A stretch of DNA of 64,000 bases from Catenuloplanes indicus. Its GTDB lineage: Bacteria > Actinomycetota > Actinomycetes > Mycobacteriales > Micromonosporaceae. The notes under the pieces are model-generated. The model was given only the letters and a program-made list of their open reading frames with translations. It did no database searches and had not been told where the DNA came from. Position numbers and translations under genes: made by a program. Location of the stretch: NCBI RefSeq assembly GCF_030813715.1, contig NZ_JAUSUZ010000001.1, positions 8,352,501 to 8,416,500 on the forward strand, written 5' to 3'. This document shows, one piece after another, positions 6,406-37,512 of this stretch; the stretch's first letter is position 1; each line of letters opens with the position of its first letter.

Positions 6406-6444
6406 GTGGCCGGGTGACCGCCGGGGGCGTACGTACCCCCGGCG

Positions 6445-8226
6445 TCACGGGTGCGGTGGTGTGGCGACGATCAGCAGCGCGACGTCGTCCTCGCCGGTGA
6501 CCACCGGGCCGTGCCGGATCAGCAGGTCGGCCAGTGTGTCCGGCCCGGCGCGGTGCTCTCGGCGCAGCAGGTCGCGCACGACGTCGAGGCCGTCGTCGAG
6601 CGTGGCGGTCCGTGTCTCGACCAGGCCGTCCGTGTAGAGCACCAGCGTCGTGCCGGGCGGCAGGTACCGGGTGTGGTTGCGGCGCGAGGTGCGCCGGGCG
6701 GCGCCGATCAGCGGGTCGTGCCCGTCGAGCAGGTCGACGCCACCGTCGGGCAGCACCACCAGCGGCGGCGGATGCCCCGCGTTCGCCCAGGTCAGCACGT
6801 GCCCGCCGGCCGGCGCCGGATCGAGGTGCGCGACCAGCACGGTGGTCAGTTCCGGGTGGCCGAGCGATCGGCTGGTGTGTTCCAGTCGGCGCAGCAGCGC
6901 GGACGGCGGCTCGTCCCGGTCGACCAGCAGCGTGCGCATCATGCTGCGGTACTGGCTCATCGCCGCGGCCGCCCCGATGCTGTGCCCGGCCACGTCGCCG
7001 ATCACCAGTGCCAGGCGCTCCTCGCCCAGACTGATCGCGTCGTACCAGTCGCCGCCGACGTGGTCCTCGTGGTGCGCGGGGACGTACCGTGCCGCCATCC
7101 GCAGGTGGTCGTGCGCGGGCAGCGGCGTGAGCAGGGCCTTCTGCATGGTCGCGGCGGCCGTGCGCCGGTCGTCGAGCGCGGTCACCCGGACCAGCGCCTG
7201 CGCGGTGTAACCGGCCAGCGCGACCAGCACCGCCTGGCCGGCGTCATCCGGTGCGTACGGCCGGTCCCAGGTGAACGTCAGCGCCCCCACCGGACCGGCC
7301 GGACCTGGCAGCGGCACGCTGACCGCGGACTGCCAGCCCATCTCCGCGAACGTGGCCAGCGCGTCCGGTGTCTCGGCCGCGACCGCGACCGGGTCCGGCA
7401 GCACGACCGGGCGGCCGGTACGCACCGCGAGCGCGGTCGGGGTGGACGAGGCCGACGGATACCGCGCCCACCGGTCGGCGATCCGGGACGGCAGCAGCCG
7501 GGCGGACGCCAGCGTCAGGTGCCGGCCCGGCCCGATGACGGAGACGCCGACGTACGCCGGGTCGAGCACGTCCGCGATCAGCTCGTGGACCGCGTCCACC
7601 AGGCCGTCCAGGGAATCCGCGCCGGCCAGCGCCGTGCTGGCGCGTAACAGCAGCAGGTTGCGGTCGAAGGCGGCGGCCGCGCGCTGCTCGTGCCGGCGTG
7701 CCCAGTAGGCGGTGATGCGCAGACGCAGACTGTCCGAGCAGGCCGCGGCGAGGTCGGCCAGCAGTGCCAGCTCGGCGTCGGTCCAGTCCCGCGGCTCGTG
7801 GTCGATCGCGCACAGCGAGCCGAGGACCTGGCCGTCCGCGTCGGTCAGCGGCATGCCCGCGTACCCGATCACGCCGAGGTCCTCGATCGCGAGGTTGCCG
7901 CGCACGCGCGGGTCGGTCCGCGCGTCGACCACCACGAGCGGCTCGGAGGCGGCGACCACGTGCTGGCAGAACGAGTGCGACAGCGGCGTCTGCCGCTGCG
8001 CGGCCCACGGATCGCCGAGCCCGCAGGCACCCGGGAAGAACTGCCGGTCGTCGCCGACCAGCGACACCAGCGCGACCGGCACGCGCAGCACCGTGCGGAC
8101 CATCTCCGCGAACCGGTCGAACGTCGCGTCCGCGACCGCGTCCAGCCCGGTGCGGGTCAGCGCCTCGAGCCGGGCGGTGAGCGACAGCACGCCGGACCGC
8201 TCCGGGAACGGCTCGGTCACGCGCAC
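6445..8226 (-). CDS. GAF-GAF-SpoIIE (PP2C-type) serine phosphatase
   Basis: The 593-residue cytoplasmic protein carries a first GAF domain at ~30-165 (SHSFCQHVV, VIGYAGMPL, GSLCAIDHEPRDW are typical), a second, more divergent GAF at ~185-335, and a C-terminal PP2C/SpoIIE domain at ~360-590. The phosphatase motifs are visible: GGDWYDA, IGDVAGHSIGAAAAM, TWANAGHPPPLV, YTDGLVETR and EDDVALLIV, which supply the metal-binding Asp residues. Family members dephosphorylate anti-anti-sigma (STAS) proteins in response to a GAF-bound signal. No kinase or STAS gene is adjacent, so the partner must be elsewhere. The start is GTG at 8226; a few residues more or less are possible. It is convergent with the sigma-like gene ending at 6405. 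Confidence 0.9.
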   Translation of the reverse strand: MRVTEPFPERSGVLSLTARLEALTRTGLDAVADATFDRFAEMVRTVLRVPVALVSLVGDDRQFFPGACGLGDPWAAQRQTPLSHSFCQHVVAASEPLVVVDARTDPRVRGNLAIEDLGVIGYAGMPLTDADGQVLGSLCAIDHEPRDWTDAELALLADLAAACSDSLRLRITAYWARRHEQRAAAAFDRNLLLLRASTALAGADSLDGLVDAVHELIADVLDPAYVGVSVIGPGRHLTLASARLLPSRIADRWARYPSASSTPTALAVRTGRPVVLPDPVAVAAETPDALATFAEMGWQSAVSVPLPGPAGPVGALTFTWDRPYAPDDAGQAVLVALAGYTAQALVRVTALDDRRTAAATMQKALLTPLPAHDHLRMAARYVPAHHEDHVGGDWYDAISLGEERLALVIGDVAGHSIGAAAAMSQYRSMMRTLLVDRDEPPSALLRRLEHTSRSLGHPELTTVLVAHLDPAPAGGHVLTWANAGHPPPLVVLPDGGVDLLDGHDPLIGAARRTSRRNHTRYLPPGTTLVLYTDGLVETRTATLDDGLDVVRDLLRREHRAGPDTLADLLIRHGPVVTGEDDVALLIVATPPHP

Positions 8227-8362
8227 ACCACGCGCCGGGCGGGCCGCCTCGTCACGCTCGCGGCACCGCCTCGGGGACGTTCGTCGCAGCCCGGCACGCC
8301 GGACATTATGACGACCGCCGGCCCCGGACCGCGAGCGCGGACGATGCCGATTCGATCACGCC

Positions 8363-8422
8363 GGGCGCCGGACCGGCGGGCGCCGGACAGGTGGGCGCCG
8401 GACAGGTGGGCGACGGACAGGC
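8363..8422. repeat. 15-bp tandem repeat, four copies
   Basis: GGGCGCCGGACAGGT-type units begin at 8363, 8378, 8393 and 8408. The middle two are identical and the outer two differ by one to three bases. A fifth, partial unit merges into the hairpin at 8423. The array lies between two minus-strand genes, the phosphatase and dctA. All frames are open but no protein is likely. Confidence 0.8.
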
Positions 8423-8457
8423 GGGCGCCGCCGGACGGGGGGAGTCCGGCGGCGCCC
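8423..8457 (-). terminator. terminator hairpin downstream of dctA
   Basis: Perfect 13-bp inverted repeat (GGGCGCCGCCGGA at 8423-8435, its complement at 8445-8457) with a 9-base G-rich loop, 15 bases past the dctA stop. Confidence 0.65.
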
Positions 8458-8472
8458 ACGGATGGGGGCGAG

Positions 8473-9834
8473 TCACGCGCGCGGGGCTGCGGGCTCCGGC
8501 GTGTGCGTCTCCTCCTCCTCCTCGTCCAGCATGGTGGCCTCGTCGAACGGTTCGCGGCCGGACAGCACCGCGGCCAGGCGCTCCTTGTCGATCTCCCGGG
8601 TCCAAGTGCCGACCAGGACCGTGGCGACCGCGTTGCCGGCGAAGTTGGTCAGCGCGCGGGCCTCGGACATGAACCGGTCGATGCCGACGATCAGGCCGAC
8701 GCCGTCGACCAGGTCGGGACGGTGGCTGGACAGGCCGCCGGCCAGCGTGGCCAGGCCGGCGCCGGTGATGCCGGCCGCGCCCTTGGAAGCGATGATCATG
8801 AAGAGCAGCAGCGAGATCTGCTCCCCGACGCTCAGCGGGTCGCCCATCGCGGCCGCGATGAACAGCGACGCCATGGTCAGATAGATCGCGGTGCCGTCCA
8901 GGTTGAACGAGTAGCCGGTCGGGACCGTGATGCCGACGACCGACTTGCTGATCCCGGCGTGCTGCATCTTCGCGATCAGCCGCGGCAGCGCGGACTCCGA
9001 CGACGACGTGGACACGATCAGCAGGAACTCGCGGCCGAGGTACTTGAGCAGGCTGAAGATGTTCACACCGGAGACCAGCTTGAGGATCAGGCCGAGGATC
9101 ACGAACACGAAGATCGCGCAGGTGACGTAGAAGCCGATCATGATCTGGGCCAGGCTCTTCAGCGCGTCCATGCCGGTCGCACCGACCACCGCGGCGATCG
9201 CGCCGAACGCACCGACCGGGGCCAGCCACATGATCATCGCGAGGATCTTGAAGACCAGGCGCTGGATCAGCTCGATCGCGCGCAGGACCGGCTCGCCGCG
9301 GCTGCCCATCGACTGCACCGCGAACCCGACCAGCAACGCCACCAGCAGCGTCTGCAGCACCAGGCCCTCGGTCAGCGACGAGACCAGCGTGTGCGGGATG
9401 ATCCCGAGCAGGAACTCCGACGTGCTCTGGTGCGGCGCGTTCCCGGCCGCCTTCTGGCCCGCGGCCGCGATCGACTCGCTCAGCTGCATGCCCTGGCCCG
9501 GGTGCACGATATTGCCGACCACCAGGCCGATCGCCAGCGCCACCGTGGACATCGCGAGGAAGTAACCGAGGGCCAGGCCGCCGACCTTGCCGACCGACGC
9601 GGCCTTCCGGATCGACCCGATGCCGAGCACGATGGTGCAGAAGATGACCGGCCCGATCATCATCTTGATCAGGTTGACGAAGCCGGTGCCGAGCGGCGCC
9701 AGGGCCTTCGCGGTCTCCGGCCAGATGAAGCCGACCGCGATGCCGAGCAGCACGGCGACGATGACGGCGATGTAGAGGAAATGGGTGCGGCCGCCCGACC
9801 GCCGCGCAGGCGCTGTGTTCTCCGTGACGCTCAT
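8473..9834 (-). CDS. dctA: C4-dicarboxylate:cation symporter (DAACS family)
   Basis: The 453-residue inner-membrane carrier should import succinate, fumarate or malate with protons or sodium. The N-terminal helices (FLYIAVIVAVLLGIAVGFIWP; LIKMMIGPVIFCTIVLGIG) and the family's conserved loops are present: STSSSESALPRL (serine-rich re-entrant loop), PTGYSFNLDGTAIYLT, SKGAAGITGAG, and GIDRFMSEARALTNFAGN near the end. Length matches DctA. It is divergent from a CitA/DcuS-type kinase/regulator pair 80 bases away, the usual arrangement for substrate-induced dicarboxylate uptake. The acidic C-terminal tail (LDEEEEETHTPEP) is unusual but cytoplasmic. A hairpin follows the gene. Confidence 0.93.
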   Translation of the reverse strand: MSVTENTAPARRSGGRTHFLYIAVIVAVLLGIAVGFIWPETAKALAPLGTGFVNLIKMMIGPVIFCTIVLGIGSIRKAASVGKVGGLALGYFLAMSTVALAIGLVVGNIVHPGQGMQLSESIAAAGQKAAGNAPHQSTSEFLLGIIPHTLVSSLTEGLVLQTLLVALLVGFAVQSMGSRGEPVLRAIELIQRLVFKILAMIMWLAPVGAFGAIAAVVGATGMDALKSLAQIMIGFYVTCAIFVFVILGLILKLVSGVNIFSLLKYLGREFLLIVSTSSSESALPRLIAKMQHAGISKSVVGITVPTGYSFNLDGTAIYLTMASLFIAAAMGDPLSVGEQISLLLFMIIASKGAAGITGAGLATLAGGLSSHRPDLVDGVGLIVGIDRFMSEARALTNFAGNAVATVLVGTWTREIDKERLAAVLSGREPFDEATMLDEEEEETHTPEPAAPRA

Positions 9835-9914
9835 GCCGCAGACTGTGGCCTGTGTCTCACCCGCAAGGCACGATTGCGTTCATTCTGTTCATCGCGAGGA
9901 CCCGGAACCGAAAC

Positions 9915-19322: not shown

Positions 19323-19504
19323 CCGATATTCCCGCTTCCGGCGTGCGGGCGATCCGCATGCTCCCGCGGGCAAACCGCGCGGTGTCTCCGCCTTCGCTCG
19401 ACGCCGCGTCGGAGCCGGTTTCGTACCCGGTCACCGAAGAGCCGCGAGCAGTGTCGCACATGAATCCCAGCCGCGTCGCGGCTATTGGGAAGGGGATAGA
19501 AGAG

Positions 19505-19577
19505 AGCGGACGACGGGATTCGAACCCGCGACCCTCACCTTGGCAAGGTGATGCGCTACCAGCTGCGCTACGTCCGC
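19505..19577 (-). tRNA. tRNA-Gly (GCC)
   Basis: On the minus strand the acceptor stem GCGGACG/CGTCCGC, a D-arm with GCGC, an anticodon stem-loop CACCT-TGCCAAG carrying GCC, and a T-arm with GGTTCGAATCC are all present. The discriminator base is U. The 3' CCA is not encoded. Its 3' end faces the decayed patch at 17.3-18.5 kb. No duplicated 3' segment indicating an integrated element was seen within the window. Confidence 0.95.
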
Positions 19578-19763
19578 GTATCTGCCCGGGGTTGTTGTCC
19601 CGGCGACACAGAGAACTCTAGAGCATCCCGTTCATCGACGGGACACCGGGCTCCCATTTCGGTACGCGTCGATCACCGTACGTACGCGAGGTGCCGGAAC
19701 GATCCGGACATCCGGTGCGTGAATGCCGCTGCTCGGCCATCGTGATGCGAGCGTCCGATTGAG

Positions 19764-22700
19764 ATGATGGCGAGCGTGCGATGGTCACGGACTCGACGCC
19801 TCGCGATCGCCGGGGGCCTGACCCTCGCGACACTTCTGACGGCCGGGCTCGGTCTCCTGCTGAGCCGGCTGGGCCTGGAACGCGCCGATCAGCTCTCCAG
19901 CGTCCTCGCGATGTTCATCGGCCTTCTCGCGCTGGGGGCGGCGGTGTTCGCGCTCCGTAAGGATCGCGCGGGAGCTGGCCGTGCGATGCGGCGGCAGCAC
20001 CCCACGGCCTGGGGACGTCGTCCGCTCTCCGAGGAATTGCGCCGATATCTCCTGGACGCGGAAGCCGCCGCGGACCGGTCGCCGAGCCGGTTGCTCGAGG
20101 AACGCCGCACCGAGGTGCACGCCATTTATGTGCGGCAACGGGTCGAGCAGCCCGGTACGGCGGTCCCTGAGGAGGAACGGCCGGGCCAACGGCACCGTGT
20201 CGCCCGGCGCCCGGACGGCTGGCTGTTCCTGCCGTTCAGCCAGCAGCCCCGGGTGATCCCCGTCCGGCGTCCGCTGGAGAAGGTGTTCGACCAGCACCGG
20301 CATCTGCTGATCGAGGGCGGCCCGGGCACCGGCAAGTCGACGACGGCCGGCCAGGTCTGCCGTCAGCTTGCCGCGTCCTGGCTGTCGGCGGACGAGAGCG
20401 GCCGGGAACTTTCCGCGAAGCCGCTGCTGCCGGTGCTCGTGACCGCGCGGGCGCTCGCCGAGCGGATGGATCGGGACTGGGCGGGCGCGCTGTCCGAGGC
20501 GGCGTTCGACAACATGGGCCTGAGCAGCCGGGGCCACATCGACCCGGCACTGCTGAACGAGCCGGTCGGCGACGCCGAGTGGATGGTCGTCGTCGACGGC
20601 CTGGACGAGGTGCCGAGCGACGAACTCGACCGGTTCGTGATTCGGTTGTCGAGGTGGACGTCGAGCGCAGGCGGCCCGCACCGATTACTGATCACCACCC
20701 GTCCGCTGGCCGGTCATGTGACCTCGATGCTCGGCACCGGCCTGATCGGGCACTACACCCTGCTGCCGTTCGACCGGCAACTGCTCGCCGATTTCGCACA
20801 CCGATGGTTCGCGCCGTACCGCGACGGCCCCGACCGGGCGGCCGCGTTCCTCTCCCAGGTGGCCTCCAGCGGTCTGCACGAACTGGCCTCCGTGCCGCTG
20901 ATGGCGACCATCGCGATCCGGCTGTTCGAGTCCGCTCCTCAGGTGGGCCTCCCGCGCAACCGGCACGACCTCTACGAGAACTACCTGCGCTGGCTGCGCG
21001 AGCGAAACCACAACCGGCGTGTGGCCGGGCGCGCGAACCTCCTGGCCGATCTCGCCGGAGAGCCGAATGCCGCCGCCGTGGTCGAGGCGATCTACGACCG
21101 TACCGACGACCTGCTCGAAGAAATCGCCCGAACGCGCGTCGAGAGCCGCCGTTCCCTGGTGCGCACCGCGGTGGACCGCCTGACCTCCGAGGCGGGCCCG
21201 GTCGCCGGTCTCCCGGAGCACGACTGGGGCACCCTGGTGGAGAAGGCGCTGGTCAGCACCGGCCTCTTGAGTCACCGGGACAGCGGCCCGGACTTCATCC
21301 ACCTGACGTTCGCGGAACACTTCGCGGCTCGCCGCTACGCACGCGAGCTGTCCGAGGTCTTCAGGCCCAGCGACCGGGCCTGGCAATCATGGCTCCATCG
21401 TGCGGTGTACGAAGATCCTCTCGCGACGTCGGTCCTGACTCGGTGGACCCGCGGCCGGTCCACCGAGCCATTGCTCGCCTGGCTGCTGGGACACGTTCGT
21501 CAGCAGCAGATGATCGCGGTGCGCCTGGTTGCCGAGGGCGCGTCGGCCACCGACGACCAGCTGAGGTCGTGCCTGGATGTGGTGAGCCTTGGCCTGTGGG
21601 GTGCCTCGTCGGTCGACGCGGCCGAGGTGCTGGCACCGGTCCGCCGCTTTCCGCTCGTGCCGCTGGTCGCGCGCTGGCTCGAAGAGCAGCTCGCCGTTGC
21701 CCCGGCCGGCTCCGAGCAGTGGGCCTCACTGGCCGCCGTCCTCGCCGATCGCGATCGAGACCGGCGGCCGCAGCTCATCGATGCGCTGATGGCCGCCACG
21801 CACAGCGACCGGGCCATCGGCGACCGGGTAGCGGTGGCCAAAGCGCTCGTCGACGTGGCACCGGCACGCGGTGGCGAGGTCGCCGCGAGTTTCATCGCTC
21901 TGCTGGAACCAGGCGTGATCGTCGACGCGTCCGCCCGGGGAAACCTGGCGACCTTTCTCCTCGACTACGAGGGCGCACCCAGGGACGCCGCACTTGCCGC
22001 ACTGACCACCATCCTGCGGGACGTCACCGCGGCTCTCTCCGACCGGCAGGCCGCGGCCGAGGCACTGGCGGAGTGGAACGGCGAGACGCGCAGTGTGATC
22101 GTCGCCGAATTGCGCGGTGCACTGTCACTGCCGGGCTACGTGGCATTGCGGACGAAAGCCGCCGCCGCGTGTGCGATCGCGGCGATCGCGCCGGAGCAGC
22201 GCACCGAGATGGCCGCCGTGATCCGCGGCTATCTCGGCCGGAGCGATCTGGAACGACTAGAAGTTCTTCCTATCGTTGAGCTGCTGGCCGATCTCGATCC
22301 AGCTTCTCGGCAGTACGTGGTCGACTTCTTGGAGCGCGCGGCTTCCGCTCCGACCGCATCCGCTTTCGATCGGCTCCGAATGGCCGTGCGAATTGTGCGA
22401 TTCGGCGATGAGCTGTGGCATGCCGGACTAAGGATTGTGGCAGACGTCCTCAGGATCAGTAATGTGCTCGACTCGTATTCCAACTTGGACTTGCGGAGTT
22501 TTCGTGATCTGGACAGGGAGTTCGTCCAGCAATTGGTTGCTCTTGTTGCCGCCGTTGCTGAGGAGGTGGAAGCTGAGCCGACAACGGCGAGCTGGATCCG
22601 GTCGACTGCTGCCTGCTTTGATCCGAGTTTCCGAGATGACGTAGATGTTGTTGTGTCGGCTTTGAGTGGCCCCGGTTTGACGGTCTGGGAGCTGTACTCG

Positions 22701-25400
22701 GTGCAGAGTCGAGTACGTGATTGTTCGCCTCTTGTGGTGGACGGTGTTGTGGGTATGATCAAGTCTCTGGCATTCGGCGGCGTGGCTGACCTTAGCGAGG
22801 AACGGGCTGCCGGGCTAGCGATGGCGCTGGGCAATGAGGACGTCGAAGGACGCCGCGCATACGTCGATCTCGTGCGACGCGTGATGCTGGACCGGGGGGC
22901 GGGGCCGGATGCGCAGGTCAACGCCGCGTTGAACTTGTGCGGTATCCCCGGGTATGAAGGTGAGGTTGCCGGAATTCTGGCGGATGTCCTGCGTGGCTCT
23001 GATGCTATGCGGATGTGGCCTTCCGAATGGATGTACCGGATCGTGGGTGTGCCCGCCTACGGGCAGTTCGCCAAAGTTATTCTCGATGAATCGCTTGAGG
23101 GGGCGCACCTGCCGCACTTCGAGCGTGTCGCGGTTCTTAACAAATTCAGTGAGGATTTTGCGACGCATGATCAGACGGTTGCAATCGAGAAGTTGCGGCG
23201 GCTTGCGCATGATCGTACCAATACTACTCAGGATTTGGTGGCCATTAGTTCCTGCCTGTCGGCAATGGTGCCCGGCCGAGGAATTGATGCTGCCCTCCGC
23301 GGACTGCTCAATGATGTGGACAGGCCTGTCGAGGACCGCCTCATGGTGGCCGTATTCCTGGACAAGGAGCCAGGCGGCGGAGTGGAGGCTCGGGATTTCC
23401 GATTGGGGGTGTCGCGCGACGATTTCGTCAGTTTGAGTAGTCGTCAGCTGGCACTTCGCCAACTGGCCGACCCGGAGATCGACGGTTCGGAGATGCTTAT
23501 CCAGACCGGGAAGGCGCTGCCGTGGATGGCGACGTACCGTGTCCCAAGGCGCATTCAAGAATTCCTGCTGCGCATGTCGTTCGATGGACGCCATGATGAC
23601 CTGCAAACGCGGGTTGTGGATCTGCAACTTCGCAGTATCTCCAGTCGTGCCATCTACCCCGGAGGTGACGCCGCCGATGTCCTGGCTCGCGTGGACAGTT
23701 GTGCGGCGACGGTACGATCCGGGCTCGCGGAACCGGTGCCGTCACCGGCACTGATCTGTGCCGCCGCCGTCATTCTGCCGCGGGAGCACGCGAAGGTCGC
23801 CGCCGCGATCCAGAGGGTTGTCGCGGAGCGGAGCAGCACGCCGGTGGAGCGTCGCCGGCTTCTGTCACTGCAGCTCAGCCTGGTACCGGCGGAACGTCCG
23901 GCAGCACTCGGCATCCTGCGTGCGTCGGCCCATCGCGTCAACGCCGAAGACCGGCTGCAGCCACCGTCGCTCGACGCCATCGAGGCAGCGGAAACCCTCC
24001 TCTCCGTGGTCGCGCAGCGAGAGTTCGCCGCCGCCGCGCTCGCCGCCGTGATGGCGGATACCGGTGAAACCACAAGCCGCCGTCGGGCGGCGTGCGAGTC
24101 GCTGGCCACGCACGGCGGCGGGCCACAGGCCCGGCGCCGAGCCGCAGCGTTCTTCACGGCGCAGACCGATAGCACGCAGCTGTCGATCCCGGCGCGGTGT
24201 GCCGCGGCTGAGCACCTCCGCTCGGCGGCAGCCGGCACACATGCGGCGGTCGCCGGGCGGCTGCGTGACTGGCTCGCCGCGGCCGATGCGGCCGAGGATC
24301 GGGCTCAGGTCCTGCGGTCCTTGCTGGACTGGGATCCGAACGACGACGACGCGCTCAACGGCTTGCTCACGATCGTCGCCAGCGCGGACGCGCCCGGCCG
24401 GGTGAGATCGCATGTCGCGCGGATGCTCGCCCAGCGATCGCCGGTGCACCGGCGCGCGCTCGGGACCGTGCTGGAGCGACTCCTCGACGATGGTGTCCCG
24501 CCGGTCCAGCGTGCGGCGTTCCGTGCCGCGCTGGCCGAAGCGTTCCCGGACACCAGGGGCGCCGCCATCGCCGACCTGACAGCGATCGCGACGGACGACC
24601 GTCAGCCGCCGGTCATCCGGGTGGACGCCGCGCGAATGCTGCGCGACCTGGGCTCCGTCGCGTCGGTCCGCACGGGTTACCTGACCCTGTACGCGATCTT
24701 CGTGGACGGCGCGCAGCCCGGTCATGCGCGCATCCAGGCCGGTGAGACCCTGATGAACGCTCCCGGACCCAAGCTGCGAGAGGTCTACGACCGCATGCTC
24801 GACCTGGACACCGCCCACGCCGACGATCGGCTCGCCGCCGCCGTAGCGGTGCTGCGGTACATCGGCCCACCGCCCGCGATTCTCGTGCATGACCTGCGGC
24901 AGCCCGCCGACGTGGCGGTCCGGCGGGCGCTGCTGTCACCGGACCTGTCACCGCACCGCATGTTGCCCGCCGCCGTCGCGCTCGGCGAACTGGGCGATGC
25001 CGAGTGCCGCCAGGCCGCGGTGGCCACGCTGGAGAAGCTGGCCGACGACGACACCGCCCGCCCCTGGCTGCGGTATGCCGCGATCGCGGCCATTCCGGCG
25101 ATCACTTTCGACCGGGTGGCGGAGCGCACCGGACGCCTCTGGGCCGTGGTGACCGACGACGGGCAGCCGCTGGATCACCGCCGCTGGGCCGCGGAGGCGT
25201 TCGCCGGCATCGCCGGGTTGCTGCGGCGCCCCGCTCGCGATGCGTTGCGGGCGCTGGACGGTGAGCATCTGGAACCGCGAGCGCGCCGTCGTCTCCGTCG
25301 CTCCATCGCCTACATCGACAACGAGGAGCGCTGGATTCCCGGCACGAGCGAATCGCACGAGGTGGCGGGCAGCGGCCGGGCGGGGACAGCGAGCGGCTAG
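19764..25400 (+). CDS. giant membrane-anchored NACHT NTPase with HEAT-like repeat array (bNACHT-type)
   Basis: This 1878-residue protein begins with two membrane helices (~10-33 and ~44-64). A linker leads to a NACHT/STAND ATPase at ~175-520. Walker A is GGPGTGKST (185-193, Lys191); Walker B is WMVVVDGLDEVP (Asp278, Asp281-Glu282); the sensor motif LLITTRP lies at 308-314; FIHLTFAEHFAARRYA near 511 closes the winged-helix part. From ~560 to the end it is an almost unbroken series of paired helices resembling HEAT/armadillo repeats (YVALRTKAAAACAIAAIAP, WLRYAAIAAIPAI). Bacterial NACHT proteins of this plan are antiphage, NLR-like sensors: repeats sense, NACHT oligomerises, and the N-terminal part (here membrane helices) is the effector. 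That role is inferred. Codons 826-1300 are AT-richer than the rest. An EVE-domain gene follows in 26 bases. A rare TTA codon occurs at Leu308. Confidence 0.9.
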   Translation: MMASVRWSRTRRLAIAGGLTLATLLTAGLGLLLSRLGLERADQLSSVLAMFIGLLALGAAVFALRKDRAGAGRAMRRQHPTAWGRRPLSEELRRYLLDAEAAADRSPSRLLEERRTEVHAIYVRQRVEQPGTAVPEEERPGQRHRVARRPDGWLFLPFSQQPRVIPVRRPLEKVFDQHRHLLIEGGPGTGKSTTAGQVCRQLAASWLSADESGRELSAKPLLPVLVTARALAERMDRDWAGALSEAAFDNMGLSSRGHIDPALLNEPVGDAEWMVVVDGLDEVPSDELDRFVIRLSRWTSSAGGPHRLLITTRPLAGHVTSMLGTGLIGHYTLLPFDRQLLADFAHRWFAPYRDGPDRAAAFLSQVASSGLHELASVPLMATIAIRLFESAPQVGLPRNRHDLYENYLRWLRERNHNRRVAGRANLLADLAGEPNAAAVVEAIYDRTDDLLEEIARTRVESRRSLVRTAVDRLTSEAGPVAGLPEHDWGTLVEKALVSTGLLSHRDSGPDFIHLTFAEHFAARRYARELSEVFRPSDRAWQSWLHRAVYEDPLATSVLTRWTRGRSTEPLLAWLLGHVRQQQMIAVRLVAEGASATDDQLRSCLDVVSLGLWGASSVDAAEVLAPVRRFPLVPLVARWLEEQLAVAPAGSEQWASLAAVLADRDRDRRPQLIDALMAATHSDRAIGDRVAVAKALVDVAPARGGEVAASFIALLEPGVIVDASARGNLATFLLDYEGAPRDAALAALTTILRDVTAALSDRQAAAEALAEWNGETRSVIVAELRGALSLPGYVALRTKAAAACAIAAIAPEQRTEMAAVIRGYLGRSDLERLEVLPIVELLADLDPASRQYVVDFLERAASAPTASAFDRLRMAVRIVRFGDELWHAGLRIVADVLRISNVLDSYSNLDLRSFRDLDREFVQQLVALVAAVAEEVEAEPTTASWIRSTAACFDPSFRDDVDVVVSALSGPGLTVWELYSVQSRVRDCSPLVVDGVVGMIKSLAFGGVADLSEERAAGLAMALGNEDVEGRRAYVDLVRRVMLDRGAGPDAQVNAALNLCGIPGYEGEVAGILADVLRGSDAMRMWPSEWMYRIVGVPAYGQFAKVILDESLEGAHLPHFERVAVLNKFSEDFATHDQTVAIEKLRRLAHDRTNTTQDLVAISSCLSAMVPGRGIDAALRGLLNDVDRPVEDRLMVAVFLDKEPGGGVEARDFRLGVSRDDFVSLSSRQLALRQLADPEIDGSEMLIQTGKALPWMATYRVPRRIQEFLLRMSFDGRHDDLQTRVVDLQLRSISSRAIYPGGDAADVLARVDSCAATVRSGLAEPVPSPALICAAAVILPREHAKVAAAIQRVVAERSSTPVERRRLLSLQLSLVPAERPAALGILRASAHRVNAEDRLQPPSLDAIEAAETLLSVVAQREFAAAALAAVMADTGETTSRRRAACESLATHGGGPQARRRAAAFFTAQTDSTQLSIPARCAAAEHLRSAAAGTHAAVAGRLRDWLAAADAAEDRAQVLRSLLDWDPNDDDALNGLLTIVASADAPGRVRSHVARMLAQRSPVHRRALGTVLERLLDDGVPPVQRAAFRAALAEAFPDTRGAAIADLTAIATDDRQPPVIRVDAARMLRDLGSVASVRTGYLTLYAIFVDGAQPGHARIQAGETLMNAPGPKLREVYDRMLDLDTAHADDRLAAAVAVLRYIGPPPAILVHDLRQPADVAVRRALLSPDLSPHRMLPAAVALGELGDAECRQAAVATLEKLADDDTARPWLRYAAIAAIPAITFDRVAERTGRLWAVVTDDGQPLDHRRWAAEAFAGIAGLLRRPARDALRALDGEHLEPRARRRLRRSIAYIDNEERWIPGTSESHEVAGSGRAGTASG
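22240..23660 (+). other. lower-G+C segment inside the NACHT gene
   Basis: Within an otherwise very G+C-rich coding sequence this ~1.4-kb stretch uses AT-ending codons freely (GTT, CTT, ATT, AAT, AGT, TTG), for example around 22460-22640 and 23080-23300. Composition switches back near 23660. The frame stays open throughout and the helical-repeat pattern continues, so the segment is coding and in frame. Boundaries are estimated by eye. Confidence 0.65.
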
Positions 25401-25426
25401 CGTGAGCGGTGGAAGGGGAGGTGGGT

Positions 25427-25807
25427 GTGGCGCACTGGCTCGTGCAGGCGAATGTGGCCGCGTGGCGGGAACGGGCCGATCGGGAGGTGCGGGAGTGGTG
25501 CGTCAAGCGCTACCGCGATCGGGTGACGCCGGGGGATGACGTCGTGCTGTGGCTGACCGGTGGGGTCGGGGTGGTGGCGGTCGGGCGGGTGACCGGGGTG
25601 CCGTATCGGTGGGGTGACGGGTCCTGGCATGCGCCGGTCGAGTTCTCGCGCCGCTTCTTCGACGCGCCGGTGAGCCGTGCGGAGCTGAAGGGCGACCCGG
25701 ACTTCGCGGGCAGCGCGATCCTCCGCATGCCCGGTGCGGCCAACCCGTTCCCGGTTACCGACCGGGAGTGGCAGGCGATCCGGAAGCATGACGCCGCCCG
25801 CACCTGA
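25427..25807 (+). CDS. EVE-domain (PUA-like) protein
   Basis: The 126-residue protein is a single EVE domain: AHWLVQANVAAW at the start, WCVKRYRDRVTPGDDVVLWL, then GVGVVAVGRVTGVPYRWGDG and DREWQAI at the end. EVE/YTH-like PUA folds bind modified bases in DNA or RNA through an aromatic cage; in bacteria they are frequent partners or fusions of modification-dependent defence enzymes. GTG at 25427 is chosen because GGGGAGG at 25415-25421 is well spaced and family members begin at this residue. It starts 26 bases after the NACHT stop and its stop lies in the loop of a strong terminator, so the two genes form a closed operon. A function as base-modification sensor for the NACHT protein is speculation. 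Confidence 0.8.
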   Translation: MAHWLVQANVAAWRERADREVREWCVKRYRDRVTPGDDVVLWLTGGVGVVAVGRVTGVPYRWGDGSWHAPVEFSRRFFDAPVSRAELKGDPDFAGSAILRMPGAANPFPVTDREWQAIRKHDAART

Positions 25808-25825
25808 TCGAGGTGCGGGCGGCGT
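25791..25825. terminator. perfect bidirectional terminator between the NACHT-EVE and sugar operons
   Basis: A 15-bp perfect stem (25791-25805 with 25811-25825) and a 5-base GATCG loop. It overlaps the last codons of the EVE gene and lies 15 bases from the end of the convergent permease gene, so it can serve both directions. Confidence 0.8.
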
Positions 25826-25840: not shown

Positions 25841-26689
25841 TCAGCCCTTGACGCCGCCGGCGATCAGGTCGAGTTTCCAGTAGCGCTGGAGGAAGAGGAA
25901 CAGCGCGAAGATCGGGATGATCGACAGCAGGGCGCCGGTGATGACCAGGGTGTAGAGCGCGGGCTGGGAGGCGCCGCGGTTGAGCAGGGAGTAGAGGCCG
26001 ACGGTGAGCGGGAAGCGGTCGTCGTCGGCCAGCATGATGTAGGGCAGCAGGAAGTTGTTCCAGATGCCGATGAACTGCAGCAGGAACACGGTGACCAGGC
26101 CGGGCATCATGACCGGCAGGCCGATCGACCACAGCATGCGGAACTCGCCGGCGCCGTCCACCCGCCCGGCCTCGAGCATCTCGTCGGGGATCGACGCGGA
26201 CGCGTAGACCTGGCAGAGGTAGATGCTGTACGGGCTGATCACGCTGGGCAGGATGACCGACCAGTACGTGCCGACCAGGCCGGCCGAGGAGAGCAGCAGG
26301 TACTGCGGGATGGACAGCGTGATGCCGGGGACCAGCACCCCGGCCAGCAGCGAGCCGAGGATCAGCTTCTGGCCGCGGAACCGGTACTTCGCCATCGCGT
26401 ACCCGCAGGCGGCGGAGATGACCACGGTGAGCAGCGCGCCGCCGCCGGCGTAGATCAGGCTGTTCAGCGTCCACGTCCAGAACCGGCCGTCGCCGAACTC
26501 GTTCAGCGTGCGTACGTTCTCCATGAAGCCGCCGTTGAAGCTGGGGAAGCCGGAGAACGTGGTGAACAGCTCGCCCGGGCCCTTGGTGGACGCGAACACG
26601 AGCCAGATGACCGGCGCGATCGAGTAGAGCGCGCCGAGCAGCAGCAGGATCGTCGGAACGATCTTGACCCGAGTGGCGGGACGCTTCAC
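25841..26689 (-). CDS. sugar ABC transporter permease, MalG type
   Basis: The 282-residue permease has about six membrane helices and the EAA loop signature (EMLEAGRVDGAGEFRMLWSIGLP) that docks to the ATPase. The typical MalG C-terminal end, YWKLDLIAGGVKG, is present. The GTG start at 26689 is supported by CGGAGG five bases upstream and overlaps the previous gene's stop as GTGA, which suggests translational coupling. It is the last gene of the lacI operon. Substrate class is inferred from the beta-galactosidase in the same operon. Confidence 0.92.
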   Translation of the reverse strand: MKRPATRVKIVPTILLLLGALYSIAPVIWLVFASTKGPGELFTTFSGFPSFNGGFMENVRTLNEFGDGRFWTWTLNSLIYAGGGALLTVVISAACGYAMAKYRFRGQKLILGSLLAGVLVPGITLSIPQYLLLSSAGLVGTYWSVILPSVISPYSIYLCQVYASASIPDEMLEAGRVDGAGEFRMLWSIGLPVMMPGLVTVFLLQFIGIWNNFLLPYIMLADDDRFPLTVGLYSLLNRGASQPALYTLVITGALLSIIPIFALFLFLQRYWKLDLIAGGVKG

Positions 26690-27606
26690 GACGACCTCCG
26701 GGCACGGAACCGGAACACGGCCAGCGCGGCCACGGACAGCAGGACGGTGATCAGCGCGAGCAGCACGGACGTGGCCGCGCTCAGGTAGATGTCGTTCTCG
26801 ATGAAGCCCTGCTGGTAGATGCGCATCAGCGGGACCCAGTCCGGCGTGATCGAGTTGGTCATGGACTTGACCGTGTTCGGCTCGCTGAAGACCTGGAGCA
26901 TGCCGATCAGCGAGAACACCGACGTCATGATCAGGGCGGGCGCGAGCAGCGGGATCTTGATCTTCCAGGCGATCTGCCACTCGGACGCACCGTCGATCTT
27001 CGCGGCCTCGTAAACCTCGGCCGGCATCGCACGCAGTGCGGTGTAGAGCACGACCATGTTGAAGCCGACCGAGCCCCAGATCGCGATGTTCGCGATCGAG
27101 AAGTAGATCGACACGTCACCGAAGAAGTCCGGCGCGGGCACGCCCAGTTCGGTGGCGACCCGGTTGATCGGGCTGACCGCGGGCAGGTACGTGAAGCCCC
27201 ACAGCACCGAGGCGATGACGCCCGGCACCGCGTACGGCAGGAAGATCGACAGACGGGAGAAGCTCTTCAGCCCGACCTTCGGCACGTCCAGCATGAGCGC
27301 GAACGACAGGGCCAGGCCCATCGTGACCGGCACCATGATGACGCCGTACGCGAGCATGCGGACCAGCGCCTCGTACATGGCCGAGTCGGTGATCGCGGAG
27401 AGGTAGTTCTCCAGACCCACGAACACCTCGGTGCGCACACCGAAACCCCGGCCGCGCACGCGCATGGCGTGCAGGCTGAGCCAGATCGCGTAGCCGATGG
27501 GGACGAGGAAGAAGGCGATGAACAGCAGGACGGCGGGCGCGGCCATCAGGTACGGCGCCGCGCCGGGCCCGCGCAGGCGTCGGCGCCGTGTCGAGACAGT
27601 GGTCAT
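26686..27606 (-). CDS. sugar ABC transporter permease, MalF type
   Basis: The 306-residue permease starts with the N-terminal helix PYLMAAPAVLLFIAFFLVPIGYAIWLSLH. The EAA loop is EVYEAAKIDGASEWQIAWKI, followed by IPLLAPALI. It pairs with the MalG-type subunit encoded downstream with a 4-base overlap. The operon has no ATPase; in actinomycetes a shared MsiK-type ATPase encoded elsewhere usually energises such transporters. Confidence 0.92.
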   Translation of the reverse strand: MTTVSTRRRRLRGPGAAPYLMAAPAVLLFIAFFLVPIGYAIWLSLHAMRVRGRGFGVRTEVFVGLENYLSAITDSAMYEALVRMLAYGVIMVPVTMGLALSFALMLDVPKVGLKSFSRLSIFLPYAVPGVIASVLWGFTYLPAVSPINRVATELGVPAPDFFGDVSIYFSIANIAIWGSVGFNMVVLYTALRAMPAEVYEAAKIDGASEWQIAWKIKIPLLAPALIMTSVFSLIGMLQVFSEPNTVKSMTNSITPDWVPLMRIYQQGFIENDIYLSAATSVLLALITVLLSVAALAVFRFRARRSS

Positions 27607-33717: not shown

Positions 33718-35214
33718 TCACGTCTCCGGTGCTGCCGGCCGGCTGACGAAGACGGCGGCCTCGACCGCGCGTTTCCAGCGGGCGTGTTCGGCGGCCCGGT
33801 GGGCCGGGGGCATGGCGGGGTGCCAGACGCCGGCGCGGTGGCGGTTGTTGCGCAGGTCCTGGAGGTCGGTCCAGTAGCCGGTGGTGAGGCCGGCGGCGTA
33901 GGCGGCACCGAGCGAGACCGTCTCCGGGACCATCGAGCGTTCCACCGGTACGCCGAGGACGTCCGCGACCAGCTGCATCAGCAGATTGTCCGCGGTCATG
34001 CCGCCGTCGACGCTGAGCGTGGCGAGCGTGAGGCCGGAGTCCGCGTTCATCGCGTCGACCACGTCGCGGGTCTGCCACGCGGTGGCCTCGAGGACCGCGC
34101 GGGCCAGGTGCCCCTTGGTGATGTAGCTGGTCAGGCCCACGATGATGCCGCGTGCCTCGGTGCGCCAGTAGGGGGCGAACAGGCCGGAGAACGCGGGGAC
34201 GATGTAGGCGCCGCCGTTGTCGTCGACGGTCCGGGCCAGCGTCTCGATCTCCGACGGCGTGGCGATCAGGCCGAGTCCGTCACGCATCCACTGGACCAGC
34301 GAGCCGGCGATCGCGATCGAGCCCTCCAGCGCGTACGCCGGTGGCTGCCCGTCGATTCGGTAGGCGACCGTGCTGATCAGCCCGTGCGTGGACGTGGCCG
34401 GCCGCGGACCGGTGTTCATCAGCAGGAACCCGCCGGTGCCGTACGTGCACTTGGTGTCGCCCGGGTCGAAGCACGCCTGGCCGAACAGCGCGGCCTGCTG
34501 GTCGCCGATCGCGGCGCCGATCGGCACGCCGAGGAACGACGTGCCGAAGTGGGCGGACGACGGCCGGATCTCCGGCAGCATCGCGGCGGGGATGTCGTAC
34601 AGCGCGAGCAGCCGTGCGTCCCAGTCCAGGGCGGAGAGCGACATCAGCTGGGTACGGCTGGCGTTGGTCACGTCGGTGGCGAACACGTCCCCGCCGGTGA
34701 GGTTCCAGATCAGCCAGGTGTCCATGGTGCCGCACAGGATCTCGCCGCGCGCCGCCCGTACCCGCAGCGATGGGTCTTGATCCAGTAACCACCGGATCCG
34801 GGGCGCGGAGAAGTAGGTGGACGGCGGCAGCCCGGTGATCTCCCGCAGCAGGTCGCCGTGCCCGAGCGCGGCGACGAGACCGGCCGTCCGGGTGTCCTGC
34901 CAGACGATCGCGGGTGCGACCGGCACGCCGGTCCGCCGGTCCCACAGCACGGTCGTCTCGCGCTGGTTCGCGATGCCGATCGCGGCCACCTGGCCGGGCT
35001 CGAGGCCGGCCTCGCGCAGCGCCTGCGGGATGAGTTTCCGCACGTCGCGCCAGATGCGGGCGGCGTCGTGCTCGACCCAGCCGGGTCGCGGGTAGGACTG
35101 GGGGAGCGGGCTGCGGGCCACCGCGACCACGGTCGCGCGCCGGTCGAAGACGATGCAGCGCGTCGACGTGGTGCCCTGGTCGATCGCGAGCACGTACCGC
35201 TCGGTGAGGCTCAC
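33718..35214 (-). CDS. glpK: glycerol kinase (copy 1)
   Basis: The 498-residue FGGY kinase phosphorylates glycerol to sn-glycerol 3-phosphate. It contains [15 protein letters not shown] (phosphate 1), [50 protein letters not shown] and the C-terminal ATP contacts. It follows the IclR regulator with a 4-base GTGA overlap. A TTA leucine codon occurs in the RWLLDQDPS segment, where copy 2 has CTG; TTA codons are rare here and in Streptomyces depend on the bldA tRNA. A central 205-bp block is ~93% identical to the other glpK. Confidence 0.95.
34640..34844 (-). repeat. inverted 205-bp repeat, arm 1 (in glpK copy 1)
   Basis: Aligned without gaps to 36401-36605 on the opposite strand with 14 mismatches (about 93% identity), including a 68-base run without any difference. 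The kinases are much more divergent upstream of this block. Confidence 0.85.
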
Positions 35215-36039: not shown

Positions 36040-37512
36040 GTGGCGGACTTCGTCGGCGCGGTCGATCAGGGGACCACCAGCACCCGGTTCATGATCTTCG
36101 ACCGGTCCGGTGCGGAGGTCGCGCGCGGCCAGGTCGAGCACCGGCAGATCCTCCCGCGGTCCGGCTGGGTCGAGCACGACCCGATCGAGCTGTACGAGAA
36201 CACCCGCAAGACCATGGAGGCCGCGCTCGCGTCCGCCGGGCTGACCGCGTCCGACCTGGCCACGATCGGGATCACGAACCAGCGGGAGAGCGTGGTGCTG
36301 TGGGAGCGCGCGACCGGCCGCCCGCTGCACAACGTGATCGGCTGGCAGGACACCCGGACGGCGGAACTGGTGACCTCGATCGGTCACGCCGCCGAGATCC
36401 GGGAGATCACCGGGCTGCCACCGGCCACCTACTTCTCCGCCACCAAGATCCGGTGGCTGCTGGATCAAGACCCATCGCTGCGGGTACGGGCGGCACGCGG
36501 CGAGATCCTGGCCGGCACCGTGGACACCTGGCTGCTGTGGAACCTCACCGGCGGGGACGTGTTCGCCACCGACGTGACCAACGCCAGCCGTACCCAGCTG
36601 ATGTCCCTGGAGACCCTGACCTGGGATCCGCGGCTGCTCGCGCTGTTCGGCATTCCCGCGGAGATGCTGCCGGAGATCCGGTCGTCGTCCGCGCACTTCG
36701 GCACCGCGACGAACGGTGTGCCGATCGAGGCGGTGATCGGCGACCAGCAGGCCGCGCTGTTCGGGCAGACCTGCTTCGACCCGGGTGACGCCAAGGCCAC
36801 GTACGGCACCGGGAACTTCATCCTGCTCAACACCGGCGGTACGCCGGTCCGGTCCACGCACGGGCTGCTCACCACGGTCGCCTACCGCAACGGCGACGAG
36901 CCGCCGGTCTACGCGCTGGAGGGCTCGATCGCCGCCACCGGCGCCGCGATCCAGTGGCTGCGCGACCAGGCCGGCTTCTTCGACGACGCGGCGCAGAGCG
37001 AGACGCTGGCCGGGAGCGTCGAGGACAGCGGCGGCGTGGTGTTCGTGCCCGCGTTCTCCGGGCTGTTCGCGCCGTACTGGCGGCCGGACGCGCGCGGCGC
37101 GATCCTCGGGCTGTCCCGCTTCCACACCGCGGCGCACATCACCCGGGCCGCGCTGGAGGCGATCTGCTACCAGACCCGGGACGTGGTCGACGCGATGGCG
37201 CTGGACGCGGGCACGCCGCTGTCGAAGCTGCGGGTGGACGGCGGCATCACGGCGAACGCGCTGTGCATGCAACTGCAGGCGGACATCCTCGGCGTACCCG
37301 TGATCAGGCCCGCGGTCGCCGAGACCACCGCGCTCGGCGCGGCCTACGCGGCCGGGCTGACCGCCGGATTCTGGGCCTCCACCGACGAACTCCGCGCCAA
37401 CTGGCGGGAATCCCGCCGCTGGCAGACCACCTGGCCGGCCGACCGCCGGGACCAGGGACACACACGCTGGAAGGCCGCGGTCGAGCGCACCTTCGGACTA
37501 GGGGATATCTGA
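36040..37512 (+). CDS. glpK: glycerol kinase (copy 2)
   Basis: The 490-residue FGGY kinase has [62 protein letters not shown] and [10 protein letters not shown]. The GTG start at 36040 has GAGAGGA eight bases upstream. It ends in TGATG shared with glpD, the classic coupled order. N-terminal parts differ clearly from copy 1 (about half the residues), whereas the centre is nearly identical. With glpD next door this copy is the likely main catabolic kinase. No glycerol facilitator gene is adjacent. Confidence 0.95.
36401..36605 (+). repeat. inverted 205-bp repeat, arm 2 (in glpK copy 2)
   Basis: Counterpart of 34640-34844 in opposite orientation; it encodes [14 protein letters not shown] through RTQLMS. 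The arms are 1.56 kb apart and flank iclR. Confidence 0.85.

What the first reader, a model, noticed from the sequence alone, without database searches (positions are those of the whole stretch)
19764..25825. NACHT-HEAT giant plus EVE protein: candidate undescribed two-gene defence operon
Seen: two N-terminal membrane helices, an intact NACHT ATPase (Walker A 185-193, Walker B 274-282), ~1300 residues of HEAT-like helices, then 26 bases later a one-domain EVE protein with a good ribosome binding site, closed by a perfect 15-bp terminator. Known: bacterial NACHT proteins are antiphage NLR-like ATPases; EVE domains read modified bases and cluster with modification-dependent defence. Inference: a membrane-disrupting or membrane-tethered bNACHT paired with a base-modification reader. 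I know of no described system with exactly this pair.
Basis: partly seen in the sequence, partly recalled or inferred. Interest (0 to 1): 0.9.

Follow-up and report, generated by a model that had tools for sequence, protein, structure and literature searches.

The report
One-gene membrane NACHT sensor; EVE bystander
The giant gene encodes a bacterial relative of animal NLR immune sensors with a built-in membrane hairpin and a fast-changing sensing arm, and it landed by chance in front of an older, unrelated EVE gene, so the proposed two-gene system is not real but the one-gene sensor is a notable variant.

Summary
The features are real: an intact 1878-aa ORF with two N-terminal membrane helices, a NACHT ATPase and a long helical-repeat tail, followed by a one-domain EVE gene. 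The pairing is not. In two congeners (G001, G003) the EVE gene sits directly beside the same tRNA-Gly and ABC transporter with no NACHT gene; G003 has 18 bp where the window has 5.7 kb. No EVE relative was found near 40 distinct NACHT-relative loci, and neither of two NACHT queries has a relative beside 29 other EVE genes.

What remains is a one-gene, patchily distributed TM-hairpin-NACHT-HEAT protein (13 of 330 family genomes, own included). Relatives on the same chassis carry TIR, trypsin-like, caspase or HTH N-termini, or an amyloid-type motif; two Amycolatopsis relatives have a small BELL-like gene just upstream. The TM-hairpin proteins form one clade. Their centre is hypervariable (22-25% mean identity against 69% around Walker A). 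Best reading: an NLR-like conflict protein that senses with the solenoid and acts directly on the membrane. Phage defence is inferred, not shown. A congener carries an unrelated NACHT gene at the same site. New variant of a known kind.

The parts
19504..19577 (-). tRNA-Gly (GCC); left anchor of the insertion site. The inserted DNA lies on its 5' side, not its 3' end
   Evidence: ARAGORN; a tRNA-Gly (GCC) at the site in G001, G002, G003, G004
19654..25394 (.). Segment absent from G003 (18 bp in its place); in G001 19655-25427 is replaced by 22 bp. Holds about 110 bp of upstream DNA plus the whole NACHT gene. The left edge may lie as far right as 19666 judging from G004
   Evidence: blastn, sequences; no direct repeat of 8 bp or more between the two edges, one 8-bp inverted match
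19764..25400 (+). TM-hairpin - NACHT - HEAT-like protein, 1878 aa, single-gene system
19764..19988 (+). N-terminal hairpin of two membrane helices (residues 1-75) with a conserved turn LGLERADQLSS; L38, A41, D42 and S46 invariant in 12 of 12
20022..20150 (+). Joint before the NACHT (about residues 87-129, ...VHAIYVRQRVEQP); A103, V123 and Q125 stay invariant in an alignment with relatives that have other N-termini, so the N-terminal module is exchanged upstream of it
20280..21563 (+). NACHT NTPase and following helical part (residues 173-600), with H-x-[TS]-FAEH-x-A motif
20316..20342 (+). Walker A, GGPGTGKST, residues 185-193
20583..20609 (+). Walker B, MVVVDGLDE, residues 274-282
22164..23663 (+). 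Hypervariable low-GC centre of the solenoid (residues 801-1300): GC3 0.65 against 0.85 and 0.84 on either side; family mean pairwise identity 0.22-0.31 per 50 residues
23664..25397 (+). C-terminal HEAT-like solenoid with a better conserved cap (residues 1801-1850, mean pairwise identity 0.53)
25427..25807 (+). One-domain EVE gene: older resident of the site, not part of the NACHT system (ORF listed from GTG 25409)
25791..25825 (.). 15-bp inverted repeat overlapping the EVE stop codon, between convergent genes; not specific to the NACHT gene
25841..26980 (-). Sugar-type ABC permease (open ORF; the true start is probably internal); right anchor of the site

Best explanation
The 19764-25400 gene is a stand-alone, horizontally moving NLR-like conflict protein. 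Inferred mechanism: the HEAT-like solenoid, whose centre changes fast, recognises an invader-made or invader-altered molecule. ATP exchange in the NACHT lets subunits assemble into a ring. The ring clusters the N-terminal two-helix membrane hairpins, which disturb the inner membrane and stop or kill the cell. The hairpin takes the place that TIR, trypsin-like, caspase, HTH or amyloid-type modules hold in relatives built on the same chassis. The EVE gene is a bystander that was at this tRNA-Gly/ABC-transporter site before the NACHT gene arrived. Shown here: domains, modular N-terminus, single TM clade, presence/absence of the NACHT gene beside a constant EVE, hypervariable centre, no recurring partner gene. 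Inferred: gain rather than loss, ligand sensing, oligomerisation, membrane damage, antiphage role.
For: Site without the NACHT gene but with EVE in G003 and G001. EVE beside 0 of 40 distinct NACHT-relative loci, and no relative of this NACHT protein or of the G002 one beside 29 distinct other EVE places. No neighbour gene recurs across the TM family: shared neighbours are mainly local synteny among L070, L101 and L102, plus a few pairs or triples of genes at unlike positions. Patchy spread: 13 of 330 family genomes at E<=1e-60. Two N-terminal hydrophobic helices in 11 of 12 members, modelled as two long helices. Fold matches to NLRC4, NLRP3 and NOD2, best E 4e-9, 5e-9 and 2e-8. N-terminal modules in relatives: TIR_2 (L037, L110), Trypsin_2 (L073, L078, L081), Peptidase_C14 (L138, a short 471-aa ORF), HTH_31 (L132). 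The TM-hairpin rows are one side of a branch, support 98/94, in a tree of 39 cores. Mean pairwise identity 0.69 at residues 151-200 against 0.22-0.25 at residues 901-1150. dN/dS 0.04-0.14 over residues 1-300 against up to 0.99 in solenoid windows among three 90-92% identical members. An unrelated NACHT gene (NNH7-NACHT) at the same site in G002.
Against: No functional data of any kind. PADLOC gives only weak P-loop hits to mad8 and GajB, and the neighbours of the TM family hold few defence-model hits, those traced being generic, so defence is not supported by genomic islands. No window had dN/dS above 1, so fast change could be relaxed constraint. Pfam HEAT models match none of the 12 members, and the solenoid was modelled only from a single sequence at pLDDT 43.7. 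The hairpin may only anchor the protein. The vehicle is unknown: the inserted DNA is one gene and its edges carry no direct repeat.
Confidence: 0.6

Rival explanations
1. One reading: a two-gene operon in which the EVE protein reads modified bases and arms the NACHT protein.
For: 26 bp gap, same strand, GGGGAGG upstream of the EVE start, so the two may be co-transcribed today in this strain.
Against: EVE orthologues stand at the same site in two congeners that lack the NACHT gene; 0 of 40 distinct NACHT-relative loci have an EVE; none of 29 EVE places has a relative of the two NACHT queries nearby.
Confidence: 0.03
2. Membrane-tethered receptor: the hairpin only anchors the NACHT-HEAT protein at the inner membrane to survey phage entry or membrane stress, and killing is done by an unlinked effector or adaptor.
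For: The turn between the helices is strongly conserved (L38, A41, D42, S46 invariant in 12 of 12), as a docking surface might be. Relatives in two Amycolatopsis have a separate small gene just upstream.
Against: No recurring neighbour gene that could be the effector. In relatives the same position holds effector-type modules in several cases.
Confidence: 0.25
3. Not defence: a STAND-type regulator or developmental signalling protein of filamentous actinomycetes, or a self/non-self factor between mycelia.
For: One relative has an N-terminal HTH (L132); no defence-island signal; the eLife 2020 conflict-system paper ties such NTPase systems to a multicellular habit (PMC7159879, passages).
Against: Patchy, single-gene insertion, hypervariable sensor and module swapping fit conflict better than housekeeping.
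Confidence: 0.12

Closest known systems
Bacterial NACHT (bNACHT) NLR-related antiphage proteins, e.g. bNACHT25 (PMC12169576: passages and the introduction read)
   Same: Tripartite plan: N-terminal effector position, central NACHT, C-terminal sensor; single gene
   Different: In the passages read, the bNACHT proteins carry a DNase N-terminus with an NCH1 domain (clade 6) or no discernible effector with a SNaCT domain (clade 14); here a membrane hairpin and about 1300 residues of HEAT-like repeats; no activity tested
BASS/BELL amyloid NLR signalosomes of filamentous bacteria (PMC7889193: passages read)
   Same: NLR-type sensor thought to act through a membrane-targeting protein; Amycolatopsis relatives of this protein (L131, L134) have motifs of that look and a small gene ending 3 bases before the NACHT start
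   Different: In the window no such motif was found and no separate effector gene; the membrane part is fused to the sensor
STAND/NACHT conflict systems of multicellular bacteria (Kaur et al. 2020, PMC7159879: passages read)
   Same: STAND NTPases of the NACHT and AP-ATPase type, TPR/HEAT superstructures and exchangeable effector domains in multicellular bacteria
   Different: Those systems are multi-component; a TM-hairpin NACHT-HEAT protein was not seen in the passages read
Animal NLRs NLRC4, NLRP3, NOD2 (fold search)
   Same: Fold of NACHT and helical parts
   Different: 14-16% identity; LRR instead of HEAT-like repeats and CARD/PYD instead of a membrane hairpin (recalled)
EVE-containing restriction and toxin-antitoxin systems (PMC7641849: passages read)
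   Same: The neighbouring gene has an EVE domain
   Different: The word NACHT does not occur in the main text held, and no NACHT association is found here

Membership tests
NACHT-type STAND NTPase | Walker A and Walker B with a NACHT-type D-G-x-D-E (pattern recalled) | tested here: met
   GGPGTGKST, MVVVDGLDE, core residues invariant; Pfam NACHT in 12 of 12 members at E<=0.01 (the window protein alone 16.6 bits, under the 26.7 cut-off)
NACHT-type STAND NTPase | Fold of NACHT plus helical domains as in NLRs | tested here: met
   Model of residues 1-620, pLDDT 76.9; Foldseek best hits NLRC4, NLRP3, NOD2; query TM-scores about 0.4, so domain orientation differs or is uncertain
bNACHT antiphage protein | Protection against phage dependent on the NACHT | not testable with these tools
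   No experiment; PADLOC lists only mad8 and GajB, weakly
bNACHT antiphage protein | N-terminal effector, central NACHT, C-terminal sensor | tested here: met
   As architecture only: exchangeable N-termini and hypervariable C-terminal solenoid
HEAT-repeat solenoid | Profile or structure match to HEAT-type repeats | tested here: inconclusive
   For: alphaREP chains at E 1.5e-5 and weaker; HEAT_2 in 3 of 4 relatives, two over cut-off. Against: 0 of 12 TM-family members match a Pfam HEAT model at E<=0.01, nor do L037 and L038 at 0.001. Single-sequence model all-helical but unreliable
Two-gene NACHT+EVE defence system | Conserved adjacency of both genes | tested here: not met
BASS/BELL amyloid signalosome | Amyloid motif at NLR N-terminus shared with adjacent effector gene | tested here: not met
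   Window: hairpin instead; a motif pattern written from recall finds none in 27 kb around it, but it also finds only 5 of 12 relatives (L131, L134, L136, L137, L139), so it is not sensitive
Genus core / housekeeping gene | Present in syntenic position across the genus | tested here: not met
   NACHT gene absent at the site in G001-G004
Integrase-borne tRNA island | Insertion at the tRNA 3' end with att repeats and an integrase | tested here: not met
   Insertion lies on the 5' side of tRNA-Gly; no direct repeat of 8 bp or more between its edges; the inserted DNA is one gene

The most novel reading that the evidence does not exclude
A lineage of bacterial NLR-like proteins has short-circuited a two-component amyloid or effector pathway: the membrane-acting part was fused to the NACHT sensor as a conserved two-helix hairpin, giving a one-protein resistosome-like membrane executioner with a rapidly diversifying HEAT-like sensor. 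In this genus unrelated NACHT genes take turns at one tRNA-Gly/ABC-transporter gap.
Probability: 0.4. Interest if true: 0.65.

Novelty: new variant of a known kind. Interest (0 to 1): 0.45.

Why it matters
It removes a false two-gene defence system from the list. It also gives a natural series: one NACHT-HEAT chassis with TIR, trypsin-like, caspase, HTH, amyloid-type or membrane-hairpin N-termini. That makes it directly testable whether a bacterial NLR can act on membranes by itself, as plant resistosomes do (recalled), and which part of the solenoid reads the trigger.

Tried and rejected
Two-gene NACHT+EVE system: rejected on synteny and co-occurrence.

Integrase island at a tRNA 3' end: rejected; the insertion is on the 5' side, its edges share no direct repeat of 8 bp or more (one 8-bp inverted match), and it carries one gene. 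A second member, L105, has a tRNA-Glu 106 bp downstream; the other 12 loci of that scan have no tRNA, so tRNA association is not a family rule.

Defence-island signal: 105 neighbour proteins (within 6 kb; only ORFs of 110 aa or more with coding-like composition) of the 12 TM-family loci, window included, were scanned with PADLOC. 37 models matched, 25 of them were listed. 31 models match one kinase-like protein beside L109 and two (mad3, mad8) a protein beside L108; these look generic. A second mad3 member and a few of the unlisted models were not traced. 19 of the 105 were rescanned one by one.

Central domain swap: the low GC (0.60 against 0.71 and 0.73) could mean an imported segment, but the GC3 dip recurs in 8 of 12 members, three of them near-copies, so it is a family trait. 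No donor was identified.

Single-sequence fold of residues 700-1878: pLDDT 43.7, unusable beyond 'all-helical'; no fold search made with it. The search for related loci with the single protein found nothing. Plasmid search: 40 records, none covering 80% of the query.

Rows dropped: L071 (G091, decayed copy) and L110 were left out of the 12-row family alignment; L071, L126, L127, L129 and L138 were left out of the tree. Of the 35 EVE loci, six are longer copies of others, leaving 29 places; the other 23 were seen with about 1.5 kb flanks, and NACHT classes unlike the two queries would be missed. Tree labels: TM by hydropathy and alignment; TIR by Pfam; HTH by Pfam for L132, by eye for L074; 'trypsin/other' by Pfam for 3 of 13, by eye or undetermined for the rest; amyloid-type by pattern or by eye (recalled motif).

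Own error mended: my notebook (entry 4) says the small gene in L131/L134 overlaps the NACHT start; one search shows 3 bases between them.

Full report
Observation. The window lies in a 9.25 Mb, two-contig genome. The ORF 19764-25400 is open over 1878 codons and has the stated Walker motifs. Hydropathy gives two N-terminal helices, 15-33 and 46-64. Pfam's NACHT model matches residues 180-350 below its cut-off for this protein alone; EVE is over its cut-off for the second ORF. The EVE protein most likely starts at GTG 25427, because its orthologues begin at the matching codon.

The pair is accidental. The NACHT protein has no match at E<=0.001 in 3 of 5 genus genomes, and G002 has only a distant 33% match elsewhere. 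The EVE protein has close orthologues in G003 (79%) and G001 (72%), both without the NACHT gene. blastn shows the window colinear with G003 up to 19653 and again from 25395, with 18 bp between the two blocks in G003; in G001 the blocks end at 19654 and resume at 25428, with 22 bp between. So one gene with about 110 bp of upstream DNA differs between them; the patchy family distribution favours gain here over loss elsewhere (inference). A version of the EVE-end hairpin is present in G003. Among NACHT relatives, no EVE relative (tblastn E<=0.01) was found in 18 loci, 11 loci and 14 loci, 40 distinct after removing three duplicates. Conversely, neither this NACHT protein nor the G002 one has a relative (E<=1e-3) at 29 distinct EVE places (23 of them with about 1.5 kb flanks only). 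EVE itself is found in 32 of 200 family genomes at E<=1e-6, own included.

The site. The gap between tRNA-Gly and the ABC permease holds EVE only in G001 and G003. In G002 it holds an 1101-aa gene on the other strand; in G004 about 21 kb of other genes, among them DUF885, argininosuccinate-lyase-like and ATP-grasp ligase proteins; no EVE was found in 40 kb of either. The G002 gene is NNH7 (235.5 bits) plus NACHT (25.1 bits, just under cut-off), with hardly any similarity to the window protein (BLASTP E 0.007). PF05729 has 2-8 matches over cut-off per genus genome (17-22 at E<=0.01, a level at which all 14 control genomes also ring), so two unrelated NACHT genes at one gap is striking, but it rests on two genomes.

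The protein family. With the first 600 residues as query, 13 of 330 family genomes, own included, match at E<=1e-60; with 800 residues and E<=1e-30, which reaches the wider chassis, 18 of 101. Twelve aligned members share the hairpin, the joint, the NACHT and the H-x-[TS]-FAEH-x-A motif. Eleven of twelve pass a 19-residue hydropathy threshold for two N-terminal helices; L108 passes for one. Mean pairwise identity falls from 0.69 (residues 151-200) to 0.22-0.25 (901-1150) and rises to 0.53 at 1801-1850. GC3 of the centre is the lowest of three parts in 8 of 12. Among three 90-92% identical members dN/dS is 0.04-0.14 over residues 1-300 and up to 0.99 in solenoid windows, never above 1. The C-terminal part matches alphaREP chains, but no Pfam HEAT model matches the 12 members. 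No neighbour gene recurs across the family apart from local synteny among L070, L101 and L102 and a few pairs or triples of genes at unlike positions.

Modularity. Relatives on the same chassis carry TIR (L037, L110), trypsin-like peptidase (L073, L078, L081), caspase-type peptidase (L138, short ORF) or HTH (L132) at the N-terminus. In several Saccharothrix, Amycolatopsis, Lentzea and Kutzneria relatives the N-terminus has a short Gly/Val/Gln-rich stretch that looks like the bacterial amyloid signalling motifs (recalled; the review PMC7889193, passages, describes such motifs at NLR N-termini and at the C-terminus of a small BELL protein encoded by an adjacent or overlapping gene). My pattern for it finds 5 of 12 such loci. 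In L131 and L134 (Amycolatopsis sp. CA-128772 and A. vancoresmycina) a 114-aa ORF with that C-terminal pattern ends 3 bases before the NACHT start (9820 and 9824 in L131). In a tree of 39 core domains the 12 TM-hairpin proteins are one side of a branch (98/94), next to the TIR pair with weak support (82/68). So the hairpin was most simply acquired once, in place of another signalling or effector module.

Structure. AlphaFold2 on residues 1-620 with 10 relatives fetched by the search for related loci gave pLDDT 76.9, pTM 0.70, with two helices 3-35 and 41-71 at modest confidence (blocks of 46-74) and a confident NACHT and helical part. Foldseek's best PDB matches are NLRC4, NLRP3 and NOD2, E 4e-9, 5e-9 and 2e-8, query TM-scores about 0.4. 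The solenoid could not be modelled reliably.

Mechanism. Shown: architecture, modular N-terminus, hypervariable solenoid centre, no recurring partner, presence/absence beside a constant EVE. Inferred from NLR/STAND knowledge (tripartite scheme as stated in PMC12169576, introduction read; also PMC10907252, passages): solenoid senses, NACHT oligomerises on ATP, clustered hairpins act on the membrane. The tether rival is not excluded.

Known or new. No paper holding both 'EVE domain' and 'NACHT' was found in the held library (0 papers), and NACHT does not occur in the main text of the EVE survey PMC7641849. That fits the pair being accidental. Searches for NACHT with transmembrane/antiphage terms (20 of 2,142 listed; 5 listed) and NACHT with HEAT repeats (7; 8) showed no title or shown abstract describing a membrane-hairpin NACHT-HEAT family. 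Passages of five papers were read (PMC12169576, PMC7159879, PMC10907252, PMC7889193, PMC7641849), plus the introduction of the first; the Cell 2023 bNACHT survey is not held, so prior description cannot be ruled out. I rate it a new variant of a known kind.

Noticed in passing
L113:9938-13243 (G002): An unrelated NACHT gene (NNH7-NACHT, 1101 aa) sits in the same tRNA-Gly/ABC-permease gap in a congener, on the opposite strand: the gap may be a NACHT-bearing hotspot.
   Followed up: partly
L131:9476-9820 and the matching ORF in L134 (stop ends at 9883): 114-aa small protein with a C-terminal amyloid-type motif, ending 3 bases before a NACHT-HEAT gene in two Amycolatopsis; looks like a BELL/BASS pair. 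No Pfam family matches the L131 protein.
   Followed up: partly
L037:9143-16363 and L110:6390-13628: TIR-NACHT giants of 2406 and 2413 aa on the same chassis; the first is in a congener, G002.
   Followed up: partly
L113:1169-9812 (G002): Three consecutive large ORFs that look like RecC, RecB and RecD lie between the ArsR-type gene and tRNA-Gly in G002; only the last (RecD-like) was checked by Pfam.
   Followed up: no
L071, oriented coordinates 5616-8696 (G091): Apparently decayed copy: the hairpin lies in another frame, the solenoid is truncated, transposase-like ORFs nearby.
   Followed up: no
L070 and L101, 75 bp upstream of the NACHT gene: 116-aa ORF rich in S-[IV]-G-S repeats with a C-terminal hydrophobic stretch; in the neighbour comparison it grouped only these two loci.
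   Followed up: no
window 34549-34767 and 36478-36696: Both match the same 219 bp of G004 in opposite orientations, so the window carries an inverted repeat of about 219 bp there.
   Followed up: no
L100:5721-8193: Two ORFs that look like single-strand-binding proteins and a primase-like ORF (by eye) next to the NACHT gene of the most similar relative suggest a mobile-element context.
   Followed up: no
PADLOC models mad8, mad3, PD-T4-6: These models match what look like generic P-loop, transporter-type and kinase proteins here; such hits should not be read as defence systems without the rest of the system.
   Followed up: partly
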